From positions 1-53,592 of IMG/VR virus record IMGVR_UViG_3300045240_000178: a DNA stretch of 53,592 nt. One strand, 5' to 3'. Every line of letters begins with the position of its first letter. Position 1 is the stretch's first letter. Under the pieces are notes generated by a model, which was not told the origin of the DNA, did no database searches, and saw nothing but the letters and a program-made list of their open reading frames with translations. Below, one piece after another: positions 1 to 53,592 of the stretch. This stretch comes from a virus. The translations under genes were made by a program, and so were the position numbers.

Positions 1-127
1 CGAACGGACTCACAAGCTCGCGTCCCCCGAGGAAATCGCCCATCACCAGGCGATGCAACAGCAGCAGGCCGACGAACTGGCCGAGATCGAGCTGAAGCGC
101 AAAGGCCAGCTCGCCATGCCGAAGGAC
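1..127. repeat. terminal direct repeat, left copy
   Basis: Bases 1-126 are identical to 53463-53588. Base 127 differs (C here, A at 53589), and the next three bases match again. Both copies lie in the same reading frame of one gene that is split by the contig ends. This is what a circular or circularly permuted genome looks like after assembly. A genuine short terminal repeat of the virion DNA is possible but less likely, because the copies cut a gene. Confidence 0.9.
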
Positions 128-181
128 CTGCAGGATCTGGTGCGGCTGGCCGCCGAACGCCAAACAAAAAAGGAGAAATAG
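2..181 (+). CDS. hypothetical head-region protein, 3' part (continues from 53302)
   Basis: This is the last 59 codons of a gene that starts at 53302 and runs off the right edge. Joining the copies across the terminal repeat gives a 113-aa protein. The part here is charged and helical, with a QQQQ run, and ends in a Lys-rich tail (QTKKEK) before TAG. It follows the coat gene directly, so a head-assembly or capsid-associated role is possible. I recognise no family. Confidence 0.75.
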   Translation, partial: ERTHKLASPEEIAHHQAMQQQQADELAEIELKRKGQLAMPKDLQDLVRLAAERQTKKEK

Positions 182-5551: not shown

Positions 5552-6601
5552 ATGCCACAGTTCACCATCCCCCGTTTAGAACGCGTCATCATCGGCCCGC
5601 AGACCGTGCTCGGCACCGTACCCAACACCGCCGGCGTCTGGACTTCCACCGCGGCGAAGCTGCTGCGCACCGGTGTCAACGGCTGCCAGATGAAGGCCGC
5701 GGCGCCGCTCACGCCCGTGCCGTGGAAGACCGGCACCCGATCGACCCAGCCGGGCATCGTGGGCCGCAAGTCTGCCACCTGGGCGCTTCCCAGCATGCCG
5801 GTGATCCTCTCAGGGACCGCGGGCACGCCGGCGGACTCCGATATCCTGATGGCCGCGATCTTCGGGCAGGCGGCCGGCGCCGTGGCGGCTGCCGTCTCCG
5901 TCACGTACGGCTTCAGCGACACCAACTTCCCCACGTTCACGCTGGCGCGCTTCCAGCATCTACTGGCAGGGAAGAGCGAGCAGTTCGCCTACGGCTGCAC
6001 GGTGGAAGAGGCATCGTTCGCGCTGAACGGCAACGTGTTCGAGATGTCTTCCTCGGGGCGCGCCTACTGGGCGCTCGAATCGGAGAATTTCGCCAACGAA
6101 GACGTGCTCGGCAAGGGCGGGTTGACGGCGTACCCCTTGGAGCTGGCGACGCCCACCGTAGTCGGCGCCATCCAGAACGGCTTCACCGGGATCGCGACGT
6201 TCGACGCCAACGTCATGGATCCGACCTCGGCGCCCCTGATCGCCTGCTCCCTGCGGATCCGCACCGGCACCGTGCTTTACATGGACAACTTCGGCAACGT
6301 CTATGCGTCAACGCCGGGCGGTGGAGAGCGGGCAGTGAGTATCTCGGCAGACTTCCAGGATTCGGACTCGGCGGCGATCAACAACCTGAAAGTGAAGGCG
6401 AAAGCGAAGACGCCATTCAACGTCACGCTGCAGGTGGGAACGATTGCGGGGTCGATCTGCACGTTCAATATCAAGAGCGTGCAGCTTGAGCTGGGCAACT
6501 ACTCCGACGACGGAGCGCGCGTGAAGACGTCGTTCGGCGAGAGCATGGCGCACGCATCGGCGATCGCGAATATCGACGACGTGACGATGGTGCACACGTA
6601 G
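5552..6601 (+). CDS. major tail tube protein, 349 aa
   Basis: It follows the head-tail joining genes and precedes the chaperone and tape measure genes, the standard slot of the siphovirus tail tube protein. The sequence is rich in beta strands and short Gly/Ser/Thr turns, with no signal or membrane segment. At 349 aa it is long for a tail tube, so an extra domain is likely. Call based on synteny and composition. Confidence 0.65.
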   Translation: MPQFTIPRLERVIIGPQTVLGTVPNTAGVWTSTAAKLLRTGVNGCQMKAAAPLTPVPWKTGTRSTQPGIVGRKSATWALPSMPVILSGTAGTPADSDILMAAIFGQAAGAVAAAVSVTYGFSDTNFPTFTLARFQHLLAGKSEQFAYGCTVEEASFALNGNVFEMSSSGRAYWALESENFANEDVLGKGGLTAYPLELATPTVVGAIQNGFTGIATFDANVMDPTSAPLIACSLRIRTGTVLYMDNFGNVYASTPGGGERAVSISADFQDSDSAAINNLKVKAKAKTPFNVTLQVGTIAGSICTFNIKSVQLELGNYSDDGARVKTSFGESMAHASAIANIDDVTMVHT

Positions 6602-6605
6602 ACCT

Positions 6606-6857
6606 ATGATCGACATCAATCGAGCTACAAGCGTGACGCCGGAAGTCTCGGCGTTAGTAGATGACATGTTCGACTATCACAAGTGGACTCCGGAACAGGT
6701 CGAAGCAGGCGGCCGTATTCGCAAGGCGCTGGCCGATGCGGTCCGGGTCATTATCGCGGACGTGCCGCCATCGCCGGACCGGACCGCCGCCATTCGGAAG
6801 CTGCGAGACGCGCGGATGGACTGCAACTCGGCCATCACGCACAGAGGGAAGTACTGA
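6606..6857 (+). CDS. Acb2-like cyclic-nucleotide sponge candidate, 83 aa
   Basis: Residues 22-77 match the pattern I know for phage Acb2 (Vs.4/DUF7681) proteins: an F-x-Y-H box (MFDYHKWTPEQ), then a long helix (IRKALADAVRVIIADVP), then a second helix with AAIRKLRDARMDCNSAI, where Acb2 has AL..L..A..WANAAIA. Acb2 forms hexamers that bind cyclic di- and trinucleotides and so block CBASS signalling. Here the usual W-A before the Asn is replaced by D-C. The gene lies between the tail tube and the chaperone genes, five bases after the former, in a moron-like slot. Confidence 0.7.
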   Translation: MIDINRATSVTPEVSALVDDMFDYHKWTPEQVEAGGRIRKALADAVRVIIADVPPSPDRTAAIRKLRDARMDCNSAITHRGKY

Positions 6858-6859
6858 GC

Positions 6860-7510
6860 ATGTTCGCACGCACCGTGATACACGATTCAACCACCACTCC
6901 CGGCGTGAGCTTCGAAGTCCGCCGCATGGGCCTGGGCACGCGCACCGATCTCGACTTCGAGACGCTTGCCCACCGGCAGAGACTCCGCGAACTCGAAAGC
7001 GACTACCCCGTGCCCTGCGGAAAGGAAGCGGAGTTGTCCGCCCAACTTGAGATTGCGAAGCGGAAGTCTCTCGCCGTTCCCGCCGATCAATTCGAAGCCG
7101 TACTCGAGGCCGATGTGAAGCCGCTGGCGCTCGAACTCCAAGCAGCCATCCCGATTGACGTGCGGAAGAAACGCGCGGTCATCGATGAGGAGTATGCGCA
7201 GGTCGATGCCCGTCTTCGGGCGGCGTGGATCCGCTCCGGGCTGATCGCAATCAACGGCGGCGAACTCGACGGCATGAACGCGGAGGAGCTGCTGGACTAC
7301 GGGCCGCGGGCTCTGGCGCAGGAGATTTACTTGTTGCTGGTGAATGATGGGCGATTGCGAGGAGGCGAAATCCCAAACTTAGGACCGCCTATCACTTCTG
7401 GCGAAGCGGTGGGTGGGGACAGTCAGAATTCAACTGCGGGAAGTGCCGGGGTCCTGCAGGTGGTTGGTACGTTGAACGAAATTGTTTCAAGTACTTTCCG
7501 GCCAACGTAG
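6860..7510 (+). CDS. tail assembly chaperone (G-type), 216 aa
   Basis: ATG 6860 is two bases after the Acb2-like gene. The protein is helical and charged, as usual for tail chaperones between tube and tape measure. A CCCAAAC heptamer in the correct phase at 7372-7378 predicts that a fraction of ribosomes shift -1 into the frame that continues to 7809. The unshifted product keeps 43 further residues rich in Gly, Ser and Thr and ends at TAG 7508-7510. Confidence 0.75.
   Translation: MFARTVIHDSTTTPGVSFEVRRMGLGTRTDLDFETLAHRQRLRELESDYPVPCGKEAELSAQLEIAKRKSLAVPADQFEAVLEADVKPLALELQAAIPIDVRKKRAVIDEEYAQVDARLRAAWIRSGLIAINGGELDGMNAEELLDYGPRALAQEIYLLLVNDGRLRGGEIPNLGPPITSGEAVGGDSQNSTAGSAGVLQVVGTLNEIVSSTFRPT
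7372..7378 (+). promoter_or_regulatory. -1 ribosomal frameshift site (C CCA AAC)
   Basis: The heptamer CCCAAAC is split by the zero frame as C-CCA-AAC, the X-XXY-YYZ layout of a -1 slippery site. The -1 frame is open from 7348 (after a TGA at 7345-7347) to 7807, so it spans the end of the G-type gene. This matches the lambda G/GT arrangement. The downstream stimulatory structure was not worked out. Confidence 0.75.
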
Positions 7511-7809
7511 ACCCGCGGAGAGCGAAATGGTGGATGCCAACCTACACCGCGAACCGGAGCACACAGCAGGGGCGGGAAGCTTTCCATTGGAGAATACCGG
7601 AGATCTGGGAGAGCGAGTGTCCAGTATCGAGTATTTCCCAGCGGAGTTTTGAGTTAGTGCAGATCGTGAATATGTTGCAGACGGCGAAGGAATCGACGGG
7701 ATCGACGGTAGGGGCGGATGAGATGCCGGGGTTCCTGCTCGATGCGGTGCGGATTTGCGAGAGCGAGAGCAGGACGGTTGAGACGGCGATGGAGGAGGCA
7801 AACAGCTAA
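7378..7809 (+). CDS. T extension of the tail assembly chaperone, made by -1 frameshift
   Basis: After the shift the reading continues L-R-T-A-Y-H-F-W and encodes 143 residues, giving a 316-aa fusion. The extension begins with an aromatic, Cys-containing block (AYHFWRSGGWGQSEFNCGKC, then a further Cys in YVERNCFKYF) typical of T-type chaperones, followed by helices. An ATG at 7534 in this frame could start an isolated 91-aa protein, but coding character begins well upstream of it. Its TAA overlaps the ATG of the tape measure gene. Confidence 0.7.
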   Translation, partial: LRTAYHFWRSGGWGQSEFNCGKCRGPAGGWYVERNCFKYFPANVDPRRAKWWMPTYTANRSTQQGREAFHWRIPEIWESECPVSSISQRSFELVQIVNMLQTAKESTGSTVGADEMPGFLLDAVRICESESRTVETAMEEANS

Positions 7810-10628
7810 TGGGGAACGGCCCGTACATCCTGAATATCGACAGCAACGTGTCGGGTACCCCCCAAGTCGCGGCGCTGGGCACTGAAACCGAGAAGCTGGA
7901 CGCCCGCACGAAGCTGCTGAATAACGCGCTCTACGGCGCGGGTGTCGCCAGCGAGAAAATGACGATCTCGATGGCGCGCCTTGCCATTGAGGAGACGAAG
8001 CTCGAAGCCCTTCGCGAGAAACACCGCATGTCCACGGAGGGGCTGACAGCGGCGTCAGTGAAGGCGACGGCGGCGCAGGAAGCCGCAACTGCCGCCGCAC
8101 TGAAAGGCGCGGCTGCAAACGACGCGTTGGCGGTGGGAACGACGCGCGTTGTGGGAAGCACGATGGCGGCCTCCACCGCCCTGCGCGTGATGGAAGGCTC
8201 AATGCCGCTACGTTCGGCGGCGGCGTTCCTGGGAACGATCCAGGGCTTCGGCCCCGCGATGCAACTTGCCTTTCCAGTCTTCGGCGCGATCGCGTTGTTC
8301 GGAATAGTTGAAAAGATCGGCCATTCTCTGGGGGATCATCTCTTCTCCTGGAAAGAGATCGCCAACGCGGAAAAAACAGCCACCGACCAACTAAACAAGT
8401 ACGGGGATTCCGCGAGACAGACACTCTTGGCCATCAAGGGACTGCAGCAGGACGTTTTTACGACGCAGTATGGTCCGGTCGCCGGCGCTCAACGCGAGGT
8501 GCAGTCGGCCGGAGTGGATCTGAATCAGGCGCAAACCAAGCAGCGTGATCTCCAGGAACAACGCGCCGCGCTTGAAAAGTACATCGGACAGGCAAAAACC
8601 GGCGTAGGCAATCCGAATCTCTCCGACCGCGAAACGATGGCTTTCCAGAAGGCTATTGGCGGTGTAAAGGGAACCACGGACCGCGCGCCCGAAGTCGTTC
8701 TCCAGTTCGCGCAGTCCGCATTGCGTGACGTCGGCGGGGCGCTCGGAAACGCCGATGCGGACATTCAGAAAGCACGGACGCTGCTCATACAAGCCCAACA
8801 AAAGGCTGCCGCGGCACTGGATGAGGAAGCCAAGGCCAGGCAGGACGTCGCCAGGGAATTGGCAGCGGAGGCGGCCGCGATACGGGAGCAATCCGCCCGG
8901 ACCGCCATCCAGATGCGCAAAGCTGAGCAGGGGCCAACCGCCGCCCTGCTCGAGAAGTACGCTGGGCTGCTTCCGGCTGACCGTGCCGGTATGGCCGATT
9001 TCATGCGGGGCGCGCTGCCACGCACCGCGGATAAACAGTTCATGACCTTCGTGGAGAAGCAACTCCGCGGCGGCATCGGCACCGGCTACGAAGACGCATT
9101 CAGTCCCGATGGCAAAACGCCGCACAAGCTGACCCTGACCGACTTCGACGACTCCGCCGCGGCCGAAGCGCAGTATAAGAACCAGAAAGAGGCGGTCTCC
9201 GTCTACAACACCGCGGAGCTGGGCAGGGTCAACACTCAGGTCGGCACCATCCGCGACACCGCCAACCGCCAGGGCCGGCTGCTCGCCGCGGGCGCATCCC
9301 CCAGCGATGAACTGTCCACGCTCCGGCAGCAGATCCAACTTCGCAAGGATGCGGCCTCCCAGGAATTCGCATTGAAGGCGACGCACTCCGACATCCTCGA
9401 TATCGACAAAGCGCGCCTGGAATACGTGAAGGAAATCGGGGATGCGGATCTGGACTACCAGACCAAAATCCTGTCGTTGAAGAAGCAACAGAAGGAAGAG
9501 ACCGTCTCGATGGCCGTGGGGCTGATCATGGCGGCACAGCACGGCGGAGCGGTGGGCTACCTGAAATCGCAGGCAGAGGGCCTCGAAGGGAAGATCCTCA
9601 CCAACCTCGGACGAGCGGCCATCGACTCCCCCACGGGGACGGCGATCACCAACCGGTTGCACGCGGGGGCGGGTACGTTCCTCGGTACGGCGCTCCAGGG
9701 CACGCCCTTCGGTCCGGACCCGATGAAGTCGGCCGGGGTTTCACTCAACACGGCGGGGACGAACCTAAACACTGCGGCAACTGGACTGATCTCGGCAGCG
9801 CGGGAGCTGGCCATGTCCCGTTCCGGTGGCGGTGGATCGGCAAGCGGCATATTCTCGGGCATGCCGGGTACGCTCGCGGCTGGCTCGGGCGGCGGTGACA
9901 CCGCATACAACCCTGCCGACATGGCAAGCGCAGGTTACGGCACGCCGGAGTTTGACGCTTCAGGCAATGCCGTCACCGTGGATCGCGCGGCCGGGCCAGG
10001 AGGTGTGTCCAACCTCGGCCGCAATATCGGCATTGCAGGCGCGGCGGCGGCGGGCGCATACGGCATCTACTCGGGAGTGCGAGAGGGAGGGGCTCGCGGG
10101 GCGCTATCCGCATCGGCTAGTGTCATCGGTTCGGGTACTGCAATCCTCACAGCCGTCCTCCCCAAGCTGATGGCTACAGCCGGACCGATCGGTATGGCGG
10201 CGGGCATGGTGCTCGGCATGATACCGATGCTCATGGGCGATCCCGTGGCGCAGAAGCGGCAGCAGATCGCCGACACGCTGCAGCACAACCAGTTCATGGC
10301 GCCGGTCTCCGTCAACGCATCGATGTCCACCGCCGGCGGGTACTCGGATATGGACCGGTTCGGCAATGTGCGGGATTCGACGTTCTCGCCGTTCCCGAAC
10401 GTCTCGCAGGGGTTCTTCGATTACCGCAACGGCGTCACGGTGCCGGGAAGGACGAACAGCCAGTTCGGAGGGCAAAACCCAGGGCCGCAGGTGGTGATGA
10501 ACATTCAGAACATGGATGCGAAGAACTTCATCGATCACAGTCAGAACATCGCCGACGCGGTGAATCATGCGCTGCAAACCGGCAGGGCCGCGCCGTTGGC
10601 GGAAACGCTGTCGAGCAGGGGAGCGTGA
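7809..10628 (+). CDS. tail tape measure protein, 939 aa
   Basis: It is the longest gene before the tail tip, directly after the chaperones. Long Ala/Gln/Lys/Glu-rich helical stretches (about residues 20-110, 200-380 and 450-590) alternate with hydrophobic Gly/Ala segments (around 160-180 and 750-810, e.g. GPIGMAAGMVLGMIPMLMGD). These are typical of tape measures, which set tail length and help DNA pass the membrane. I see no lysozyme or peptidase motif. Confidence 0.85.
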   Translation: MGNGPYILNIDSNVSGTPQVAALGTETEKLDARTKLLNNALYGAGVASEKMTISMARLAIEETKLEALREKHRMSTEGLTAASVKATAAQEAATAAALKGAAANDALAVGTTRVVGSTMAASTALRVMEGSMPLRSAAAFLGTIQGFGPAMQLAFPVFGAIALFGIVEKIGHSLGDHLFSWKEIANAEKTATDQLNKYGDSARQTLLAIKGLQQDVFTTQYGPVAGAQREVQSAGVDLNQAQTKQRDLQEQRAALEKYIGQAKTGVGNPNLSDRETMAFQKAIGGVKGTTDRAPEVVLQFAQSALRDVGGALGNADADIQKARTLLIQAQQKAAAALDEEAKARQDVARELAAEAAAIREQSARTAIQMRKAEQGPTAALLEKYAGLLPADRAGMADFMRGALPRTADKQFMTFVEKQLRGGIGTGYEDAFSPDGKTPHKLTLTDFDDSAAAEAQYKNQKEAVSVYNTAELGRVNTQVGTIRDTANRQGRLLAAGASPSDELSTLRQQIQLRKDAASQEFALKATHSDILDIDKARLEYVKEIGDADLDYQTKILSLKKQQKEETVSMAVGLIMAAQHGGAVGYLKSQAEGLEGKILTNLGRAAIDSPTGTAITNRLHAGAGTFLGTALQGTPFGPDPMKSAGVSLNTAGTNLNTAATGLISAARELAMSRSGGGGSASGIFSGMPGTLAAGSGGGDTAYNPADMASAGYGTPEFDASGNAVTVDRAAGPGGVSNLGRNIGIAGAAAAGAYGIYSGVREGGARGALSASASVIGSGTAILTAVLPKLMATAGPIGMAAGMVLGMIPMLMGDPVAQKRQQIADTLQHNQFMAPVSVNASMSTAGGYSDMDRFGNVRDSTFSPFPNVSQGFFDYRNGVTVPGRTNSQFGGQNPGPQVVMNIQNMDAKNFIDHSQNIADAVNHALQTGRAAPLAETLSSRGA

Positions 10629-10819: not shown

Positions 10820-11584
10820 GTGGCTGGATCTCTACCCACGATCCGCGGCGGCGTGCAGTGCCTGACGCCGGTGACGCGCCGTGTGGAGTTCCTGACCGAT
10901 ATCGCGATCGCGGCGAACTCGACGGAGCAGCGCGCGAAGAAACGGCCTGCGCTTACCCGATTCGTCCTGCCGTACTCGCGCATCAACCGTACCGACCTTG
11001 GCACCATGCGCACGTTCTTCGAATCGAAAAAGGGAAGCTGGGATTCCACGTGGAGCTTCACTCTGGGCGCGACGACGTATGCGCACCTGGCCTTCGAGGA
11101 TTCTGAATTCCGTTTCACCGAATCGGCGGGGAGCGCGACCACGTACAGCTTCCAATTGCGGGCCCGGCAGACGCAGAATCCGGGCATGGCCGCGGGCGCG
11201 GCCGGCGCGGCGTTCCCCGTGCTCAGTAGCGGACTGCGCGCGCAATTGCCCTACTCGCAGATGCGAAGGTTCGCCGTCACGCTGAACGACAATCCGATCG
11301 GTCCCAGGTATGCCTGGTCCTGGCAAGCCGCGGGATTGACCGGGTTCCCCACCAGGTCGTTGCGCGGATGGGAGCTTGCCTATCCGGTGCTCACTGATGC
11401 GGACCTGGCCGCGATTGAGACGCACTTTCGAAGCCAATGGGGGCAGTGGGCACGCTTTCAGTGGACCGACCCGGACGATGGCACCGATTATCCGAAGTGC
11501 CGATACGCGGCCGACGCCCTCGAAATCACCCATAACGCGGCGAACCAGAGCAGCCTGACGCTCCGGATCATGGAGACGAACTGA
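10820..11584 (+). CDS. distal tail-type protein (DUF2460-like), 254 aa
   Basis: GTG start immediately after the previous stop. The protein is beta-rich, with a duplicated layout: residues ~1-120 and ~130-254 both contain 'tRFVLPYS..' or 'LRGWELAYP' followed by a short 'F....GSW' or 'WGQWARFQW' box. The slot between tape measure and hub, and similarity in style to gene-transfer-agent DUF2460 proteins, suggest a distal tail protein. Family call is moderate. Confidence 0.6.
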   Translation: MAGSLPTIRGGVQCLTPVTRRVEFLTDIAIAANSTEQRAKKRPALTRFVLPYSRINRTDLGTMRTFFESKKGSWDSTWSFTLGATTYAHLAFEDSEFRFTESAGSATTYSFQLRARQTQNPGMAAGAAGAAFPVLSSGLRAQLPYSQMRRFAVTLNDNPIGPRYAWSWQAAGLTGFPTRSLRGWELAYPVLTDADLAAIETHFRSQWGQWARFQWTDPDDGTDYPKCRYAADALEITHNAANQSSLTLRIMETN

Positions 11585-53301: not shown

Positions 53302-53592
53302 ATGGATCTTCAAAAATACTGGAACGATGTGCGCGCCGCGCAGGAAAAGCTGCCGCGGCAGATGGTCTATTACCTGGTCTCGCTGGAGAACCCCGAAAAG
53401 GGCACCATCGCGGGCAGGGTAATGGATATGTCCAATCCCAAAGAAGTGGCGCGGCGCCTGGTCGAACGGACTCACAAGCTCGCGTCCCCCGAGGAAATCG
53501 CCCATCACCAGGCGATGCAACAGCAGCAGGCCGACGAACTGGCCGAGATCGAGCTGAAGCGCAAAGGCCAGCTCGCCATGCCGAAGGAACTG
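53302..53592 (+). CDS. hypothetical head-region protein, 5' part (continues at base 2)
   Basis: ATG 53302 gives 97 codons without stop before the window ends. The frame is resumed by the copy at 2-181, for a 113-aa protein. Its middle repeats a helical Lys/Glu/Gln pattern (EEIAHHQAMQQQQADELAEI). Place after the coat gene suggests a head-assembly role. Confidence 0.7.
   Translation, partial: MDLQKYWNDVRAAQEKLPRQMVYYLVSLENPEKGTIAGRVMDMSNPKEVARRLVERTHKLASPEEIAHHQAMQQQQADELAEIELKRKGQLAMPKEL
53463..53589. repeat. terminal direct repeat, right copy
   Basis: Identical to bases 1-126, with a single difference at 53589 (A instead of C at base 127). The difference changes Asp to Glu in the protein. 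Contig ends overlap here. Confidence 0.9.

What the first reader, a model, noticed from the sequence alone, without database searches (positions are those of the whole stretch)
6606..6857. Acb2-like anti-CBASS/Thoeris candidate inside the tail genes
The 83-aa protein keeps the F-x-Y-H box and the two helices (IRKALADAVRV... and AAIRKLRDARMDCNSAI) that mark Acb2/Vs.4 sponges, with an altered W-A pair (D-C). It sits alone between tube and chaperone genes. If it binds cyclic nucleotides, this phage carries an immune-signal sponge in a new genomic setting.
Basis: partly seen in the sequence, partly recalled or inferred. Interest (0 to 1): 0.75.

Follow-up and report, generated by a model that had tools for sequence, protein, structure and literature searches.

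The report
Divergent Acb2-like phage sponge gene
A soil phage, probably of Acidobacteriota, carries a small mobile gene for a distant relative of the Acb2 proteins with which phages soak up bacterial alarm molecules; the family link is solid, but what it binds is untested.

Summary
The 83-aa ORF at 6606-6857 is real, under purifying selection (dN/dS about 0.19), and a divergent member of the Acb2/Tad1 hairpin superfamily. Alone it scores E=6e-4 to PF24729, below the curated cut-off. All 18 relatives aligned with it match PF24729. A 41-sequence profile finds the solved 'Acb2 homolog 43' (9ptq, E=3e-5), and profile-profile comparison with Vs.4/p26 gives E=5e-5. The AlphaFold2 model (pLDDT 94) has the Acb2 protomer layout, and its best viral matches are Acb2/Tad1 hairpin proteins. 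It belongs to a subfamily (57 sequences, motif MD[CA]NSAITHGGKY) seen in Acidobacteriota-associated contigs. Mapped onto T4 Vs.4, the tyrosine (Y24), the basic residue (R39) and the small hexamer-interface residues are kept; R79, F82 and S74 are replaced, so the ligand may differ. The tail setting is incidental: a close relative has no gene at this site, another keeps only a truncated copy, and 51 subfamily members occupy about 29 unrelated neighbourhoods. Best reading: a mobile accessory cyclic-nucleotide sponge. Binding was not testable here. In passing: a conserved gene-transfer-agent-like cluster in most sampled genomes of one Acidobacteriota order.

The parts
6606..6857 (+). Gene for the 83-aa Acb2/Tad1-hairpin-family protein
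6639..6668 (+). Short N-terminal helix, residues 12-21
   Evidence: AlphaFold2 model
6669..6689 (+). F-x-Y-H-x-W-T segment, residues 22-28: Y24 aligns with Vs.4 Y8 (base stacking), W27 with H11, T28 with the helix cap T12
6690..6761 (+). Long helix, residues 29-52; R39 (6720-6722) aligns with the cGAMP-binding K23 of Vs.4
6774..6842 (+). Long helix, residues 57-79; invariant D58 R59 A62 R64 K65 R67 D72 N74 A76 in 57 subfamily sequences; S75 and T78 stand where Vs.4 has R79 and F82
5552..6601 (+). Upstream neighbour: tail-tube-like gene by position, no family match
6860..7510 (+). Downstream neighbour: tail-chaperone-like gene by position, no family match; directly follows the tube-like gene (18-nt gap) in L131, which lacks the candidate
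7809..10628 (+). Tape-measure-like gene (939 aa) by position and size; followed by a DUF2460 tail gene at 10820-11584

Best explanation
The gene encodes a divergent Acb2-like sponge, carried as a mobile accessory (moron-type) gene. During infection the protein would assemble, probably as a hexamer of three-helix protomers, and tightly bind a cyclic-nucleotide immune signal between protomers, keeping it from the host's suicide effector. Shown here: the gene, its family, the predicted protomer fold, conservation of part of the known pocket and interface, and its accessory, mobile behaviour. Inferred: hexamer formation, signal binding and counter-defence. The ligand is unknown and probably not bound in exactly the Vs.4 way, because R79, F82 and S74 of Vs.4 are replaced while a different face (R64, R67, N74, T78) and W27 are near-invariant.
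For: PF24729 hit for the protein and for all 19 aligned members, best 1.6e-15; profile hit to solved Acb2 homolog 43, E=2.7e-5, a 6-chain entry whose sequence falls in the same PHROG 1454; HMM-HMM E=5e-5 with Vs.4/p26; predicted fold with the Acb2 protomer layout and Foldseek matches to Acb2/Tad1 hairpin proteins and Vs.4/Acb2 (not significant); Y8->Y24, K23->R39 and small interface residues A66->A62, A73->A69, A77->C73/A conserved; gene absent or decayed in close relatives and found in about 29 settings, as expected of an accessory gene; SMODS nucleotidyltransferase domains in 21 of 150 genomes of the likely host order.
Against: Single-sequence Pfam score is below the gathering cut-off. Vs.4 ligand residues H11, S74, R79 and F82 are not kept. 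PDB Foldseek E-values are not significant. No binding or phage data. Sequence is unusually conserved (51-77% identity in the subfamily) for a gene in an arms race.
Confidence: 0.7

Rival explanations
1. It shares the Acb2/Tad1 hairpin fold but has another function, such as binding nucleic acid or a host protein with its conserved basic face (R59, R64, K65, R67, R70).
For: Five near-invariant basic residues on the last helix; loss of R79 and F82 of Vs.4; high conservation. PHROG 1454 has no assigned function.
Against: Y24 and R39 and the small hexamer-interface residues are kept; the nearest solved relative was named an Acb2 homolog by its depositors; cyclic nucleotides are anionic, so basic residues fit a sponge too.
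Confidence: 0.22
2. It is a tail component or tail-assembly factor, as its place between tail genes suggests.
For: Tight packing between tail-like genes (4 nt and 2 nt) in the window; the same place in three relatives.
Against: L131 has the same tail module without it and L134 only a truncated remnant. Most relatives lie away from homologous tail genes, beside terminase, integrase or polymerase.
Confidence: 0.05
3. It is a chance ORF or a decayed gene without function.
For: No clear Shine-Dalgarno sequence precedes the ATG in the window.
Against: Third-codon-position changes dominate and dN/dS is about 0.19; 57 subfamily sequences share invariant residues.
Confidence: 0.01

Closest known systems
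'Acb2 homolog 43' (PDB 9ptq)
   Same: Same PHROG 1454 branch; profile hit E=2.7e-5 over the whole hairpin without gaps; short helix, basic residue at the R39 position (K), no long loop insertion; six chains in the entry
   Different: Tyrosine of the F-x-Y-H box is T; C-terminal motif differs (MFFATKAAA instead of RMDCNSAIT). Its ligand is not known to me; no paper is held
T4 Vs.4 / Acb2 (PDB 7uq2, PHROG 717)
   Same: Helical layout; Y8, helix-cap T12, K23 (as R39), A66, A73 and M75 equivalents kept
   Different: Vs.4 has a roughly 19-residue insertion between the long helices; G7, N20, R79, F82 and P84 are not kept; W76 is D72; different PHROG
Pseudomonas phage Acb2 (p26; PDB 8h2j, 8h2x, 8ixz)
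   Same: PF24729 family and protomer layout; weak structural match (probability 0.66)
   Different: Same lost residues as for Vs.4
Tad1 (C-terminal hairpin; PDB 7uaw)
   Same: Two-helix hairpin covered by PF24729
   Different: No N-terminal beta-sheet here; Foldseek probability only 0.16
Lactococcus phage 1706 orf70, Tunturiibacter phage Tunturi_1 gp101, Gordonia phage Schomber gp23
   Same: PHROG 1454 members found by protein search; 1706 orf70 is the top BFVD fold match
   Different: TANA/FANA/HANA motif instead of MD[CA]NSA; orf70 has 106 aa

Membership tests
Acb2/Tad1 hairpin superfamily (PF24729, PHROG 1454) | Score above the curated PF24729 cut-off (27 bits) | tested here: not met
   20.3 bits alone; all 18 aligned relatives also match the model, best E=1.6e-15
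Acb2/Tad1 hairpin superfamily (PF24729, PHROG 1454) | Homology to proven members by profile methods | tested here: met
   PHROG 1454 E=4e-8; 9ptq E=2.7e-5; HMM-HMM with Vs.4/p26 E=5e-5
Acb2/Tad1 hairpin superfamily (PF24729, PHROG 1454) | Long antiparallel two-helix hairpin | tested here: met
   pLDDT 93.6, helices 29-52 and 57-79; BFVD matches
Canonical Acb2 (Vs.4/p26) | Short N-terminal helix plus two long antiparallel helices | tested here: met
Canonical Acb2 (Vs.4/p26) | Ligand residues Y8 and K23 | tested here: met
   Y24 and R39 (K to R), 54/56 and 55/57 in the subfamily
Canonical Acb2 (Vs.4/p26) | Ligand residues H11, S74, R79, F82 | tested here: not met
   W27, R70, S75, T78; R79 is invariant in the 16 canonical sequences
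Canonical Acb2 (Vs.4/p26) | Small residues at the hexamer interface (A66, A73, A77) | tested here: met
   A62, A69, C73 (C/A/S/V in 57 sequences)
Canonical Acb2 (Vs.4/p26) | Homo-hexamer | not testable with these tools
   No multimer prediction or biophysics available
Canonical Acb2 (Vs.4/p26) | Tight binding of cyclic di-/trinucleotides and block of CBASS | not testable with these tools
   Needs bench work
Tad1 | N-terminal antiparallel beta-sheet before the hairpin | tested here: not met
   No strands in the model; Tad1 probability 0.16
Tail protein | Present wherever the tail module is present | tested here: not met
   Absent in L131, truncated in L134

The most novel reading that the evidence does not exclude
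The MD[CA]NSAITHGGKY subfamily is a sponge with a rebuilt pocket (W27, R39, R64, R67, N74, T78) for a signal that Vs.4 does not bind well, spread across otherwise unrelated Acidobacteriota phages because that signal is common in their hosts.
Probability: 0.3. Interest if true: 0.6.

Novelty: new variant of a known kind. Interest (0 to 1): 0.45.

Why it matters
If it is a sponge, it extends Acb2-type counter-defence to phages of Acidobacteriota, abundant soil bacteria whose phage immunity is little studied. It also supplies a natural set of 57 sequences with an altered but invariant pocket, from which signal specificity could be read. The many insertion sites plus the empty and decayed sites make it a clean example of a portable accessory gene that probably serves immune evasion.

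Tried and rejected
Tail-protein reading: rejected by the empty site in L131 and the truncated copy in L134. NCBIfam and PADLOC gave no match. phmmer of the single sequence against the PDB found only noise. The model of the upstream tube-like protein failed with only four sequences, so its identity rests on gene order. A search with the chaperone-like protein alone found no relatives. No paper describing 9ptq is held, and the two key Acb2 papers asked for by DOI are not held. The strict Pfam cut-off was considered as grounds to reject membership, but the relatives and profile comparisons outweigh it.

Full report
OBSERVATION. The ORF at 6606-6857 (+) encodes 83 aa, MIDINRATSVTPEVSALVDDMFDYHKWTPEQVEAGGRIRKALADAVRVIIADVPPSPDRTAAIRKLRDARMDCNSAITHRGKY. 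It starts 4 nt after the preceding stop and ends 2 nt before the ATG (6860) of the next gene. Against L002, differences fall mostly on third codon positions (14/11/38 at positions 1/2/3), dN=0.18 and dS=0.96, so it is a protein-coding gene under purifying selection.

FAMILY. Pfam-A gives one hit, PF24729 Acb2_Tad1_hairpin, E=6.4e-4, 20.3 bits, below the gathering score of 27. PHROGs gives phrog_1454 (4e-8) and phrog_31113 (5e-5), both of unknown function; NCBIfam and PADLOC give none. Relatives from IMG/VR were aligned; all 19 members of A1 hit PF24729, best E=1.6e-15. A profile of 41 sequences finds the solved structure 'Acb2 homolog 43' (9ptq) with E=2.7e-5 and aligns T4 Vs.4 in register, though not significantly (E=0.39). 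Acb2 homolog 43 itself falls in phrog_1454 (3.6e-12), while Vs.4 is phrog_717 with a weak phrog_1454 hit (7e-4). HMM-HMM comparison with 16 Vs.4/p26 sequences gives E=5e-5 over nearly the whole protein. The homology is therefore firm at superfamily level and distant from canonical Acb2.

FOLD. AlphaFold2 with 19 sequences: mean pLDDT 93.6, helices 12-21, 29-52, 57-79. [quoted passage not shown]). In BFVD, 16 of the top 17 matches are named Acb2/Tad1 hairpin domain-containing proteins, with Foldseek probability 1.00 for the first 15 ranks. In the PDB the E-values are not significant, but Vs.4 (probability 0.75, TM 0.60) and Acb2 (0.66) are the most probable matches; Tad1 is weak (0.16).

POCKET. 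In Vs.4 the ligand is held by Y8/F82 stacking and by Y8, H11, K23 and R79; S74N disturbs binding; T12 caps a helix; L29, F33, A66, A73 and A77 build the hexamer (PMC10097602). T68M lowers binding (PMC12657230). The alignments give Y8->Y24, H11->W27, T12->T28, K23->R39, A66->A62, T68->R64, A73->A69, S74->R70, M75->M71, W76->D72, A77->C73, R79->S75, F82->T78. In 57 subfamily sequences Y24 is 54/56, W27 56/57, R39 55/57; D58, R59, A62, R64, K65, R67, D72, N74 and A76 are invariant; position 73 is C29/A25/S2/V1, always small; T78 is 52/57. The face 64-67-71-74-78 corresponds to Vs.4 68-71-75-78-82, which holds two residues of known effect on binding. My inference is that the ligand site is in the same place but lined differently.

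SETTING. Six known genomes share this tail module. In the window, L002/L022/L133, L003/L024/L135 and L025/L132 the gene is intact between the tube-like and chaperone-like genes. In L131 the two genes lie 18 nt apart with nothing between. In L134 the tube stop codon is followed directly by residues 49-83 of the gene, a 5'-truncated remnant. L132 has, besides the full copy, a second 3' fragment (DCNSAITHGGKY) just before the chaperone-like gene. So the gene is gained, lost and rearranged while the tail module stays. Elsewhere in the subfamily, 51 loci fall into 29 groups when linked by any shared neighbour within three genes. The neighbours include terminase, head closure, integrase, DNA invertase, DNA polymerase, primase, portal and major head protein. 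In 9 of 48 loci both neighbours are on the opposite strand. This is the pattern of a portable accessory gene. ORFs around these loci were called by my own simple script, so individual neighbours may be miscalled.

HOST. The best hits in species genomes are MAGs of Solibacteraceae and Bryobacteraceae (Acidobacteriota), 59-62% identical. The upstream tube-like protein also has relatives in 124 of 200 genomes of the order of the Bryobacteraceae MAG. An Acidobacteriota host is likely but not proven. SMODS nucleotidyltransferase domains score above cut-off in 21 of 150 genomes of that order, some of them short matches, so CBASS-type signals are plausible targets.

MECHANISM AND LIMITS. Most likely the protein forms an Acb2-like oligomer and sequesters a cyclic-nucleotide signal. 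Family, fold and accessory behaviour are shown; oligomer, ligand and counter-defence are inferred. The main rival is the same fold with another function (0.22). The protein is not filed as canonical Acb2, because the equivalents of ligand residues H11, S74, R79 and F82 are not kept, nor as Tad1, because the beta-sheet is missing. The claim that it works like an Acb2 is kept at 0.7.

Noticed in passing
window 5552-6601; L151 1139-14861 (G050), L152 2223-16043 (G068), L153 (G045): Possible order-wide gene transfer agent in Acidobacteriota. The tube-like protein has relatives (mostly about 390 aa, 22-30% identical) in 124 of 200 genomes of one order, that of the Bryobacteraceae MAG G002. In L151 and L152 they sit in a compact cluster of about 14 kb with terminase, a DUF4055 (portal-like) protein, P22-type coat, a short tape-measure-like gene of about 217 aa, DUF2460 and Phage-tail_3; L152 is followed by an ABC-transporter gene. 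The coat protein is mostly 72-88% identical, nearly always single-copy, in 69 of 100 genomes of the order, usually on the same contig about 3 kb from the tube relative, while the tube protein was found in only 2 of 119 genomes sampled across the phylum, one of them G002 itself. No description of it was seen in the paper library.
   Followed up: partly
window 1-130 and 53463-53592: The window ends in a 130-bp direct repeat of its start with one mismatch, so the contig looks like a complete circularised phage genome.
   Followed up: partly
L029 2336-2701 and L032 5884-6249 (contig IMGVR_UViG_3300036790_000324): One phage contig carries two copies of the subfamily gene near its two ends, both with a 121-aa reading frame and similar flanking DNA.
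   Followed up: no
L132 about 7236-7281, just before the chaperone-like gene: A 3'-terminal fragment of a second candidate copy (DCNSAITHGGKY, stop) remains about 0.7 kb behind the intact gene, a trace of recombination at this site.
   Followed up: partly
L105 4974-5189 (Gordonia phage Schomber gp23): A PHROG 1454 protein annotated as hypothetical sits between the portal gene and an RNA ligase / ADP-ribosyltransferase pair: another unlabelled Acb2-like candidate among structural genes.
   Followed up: no
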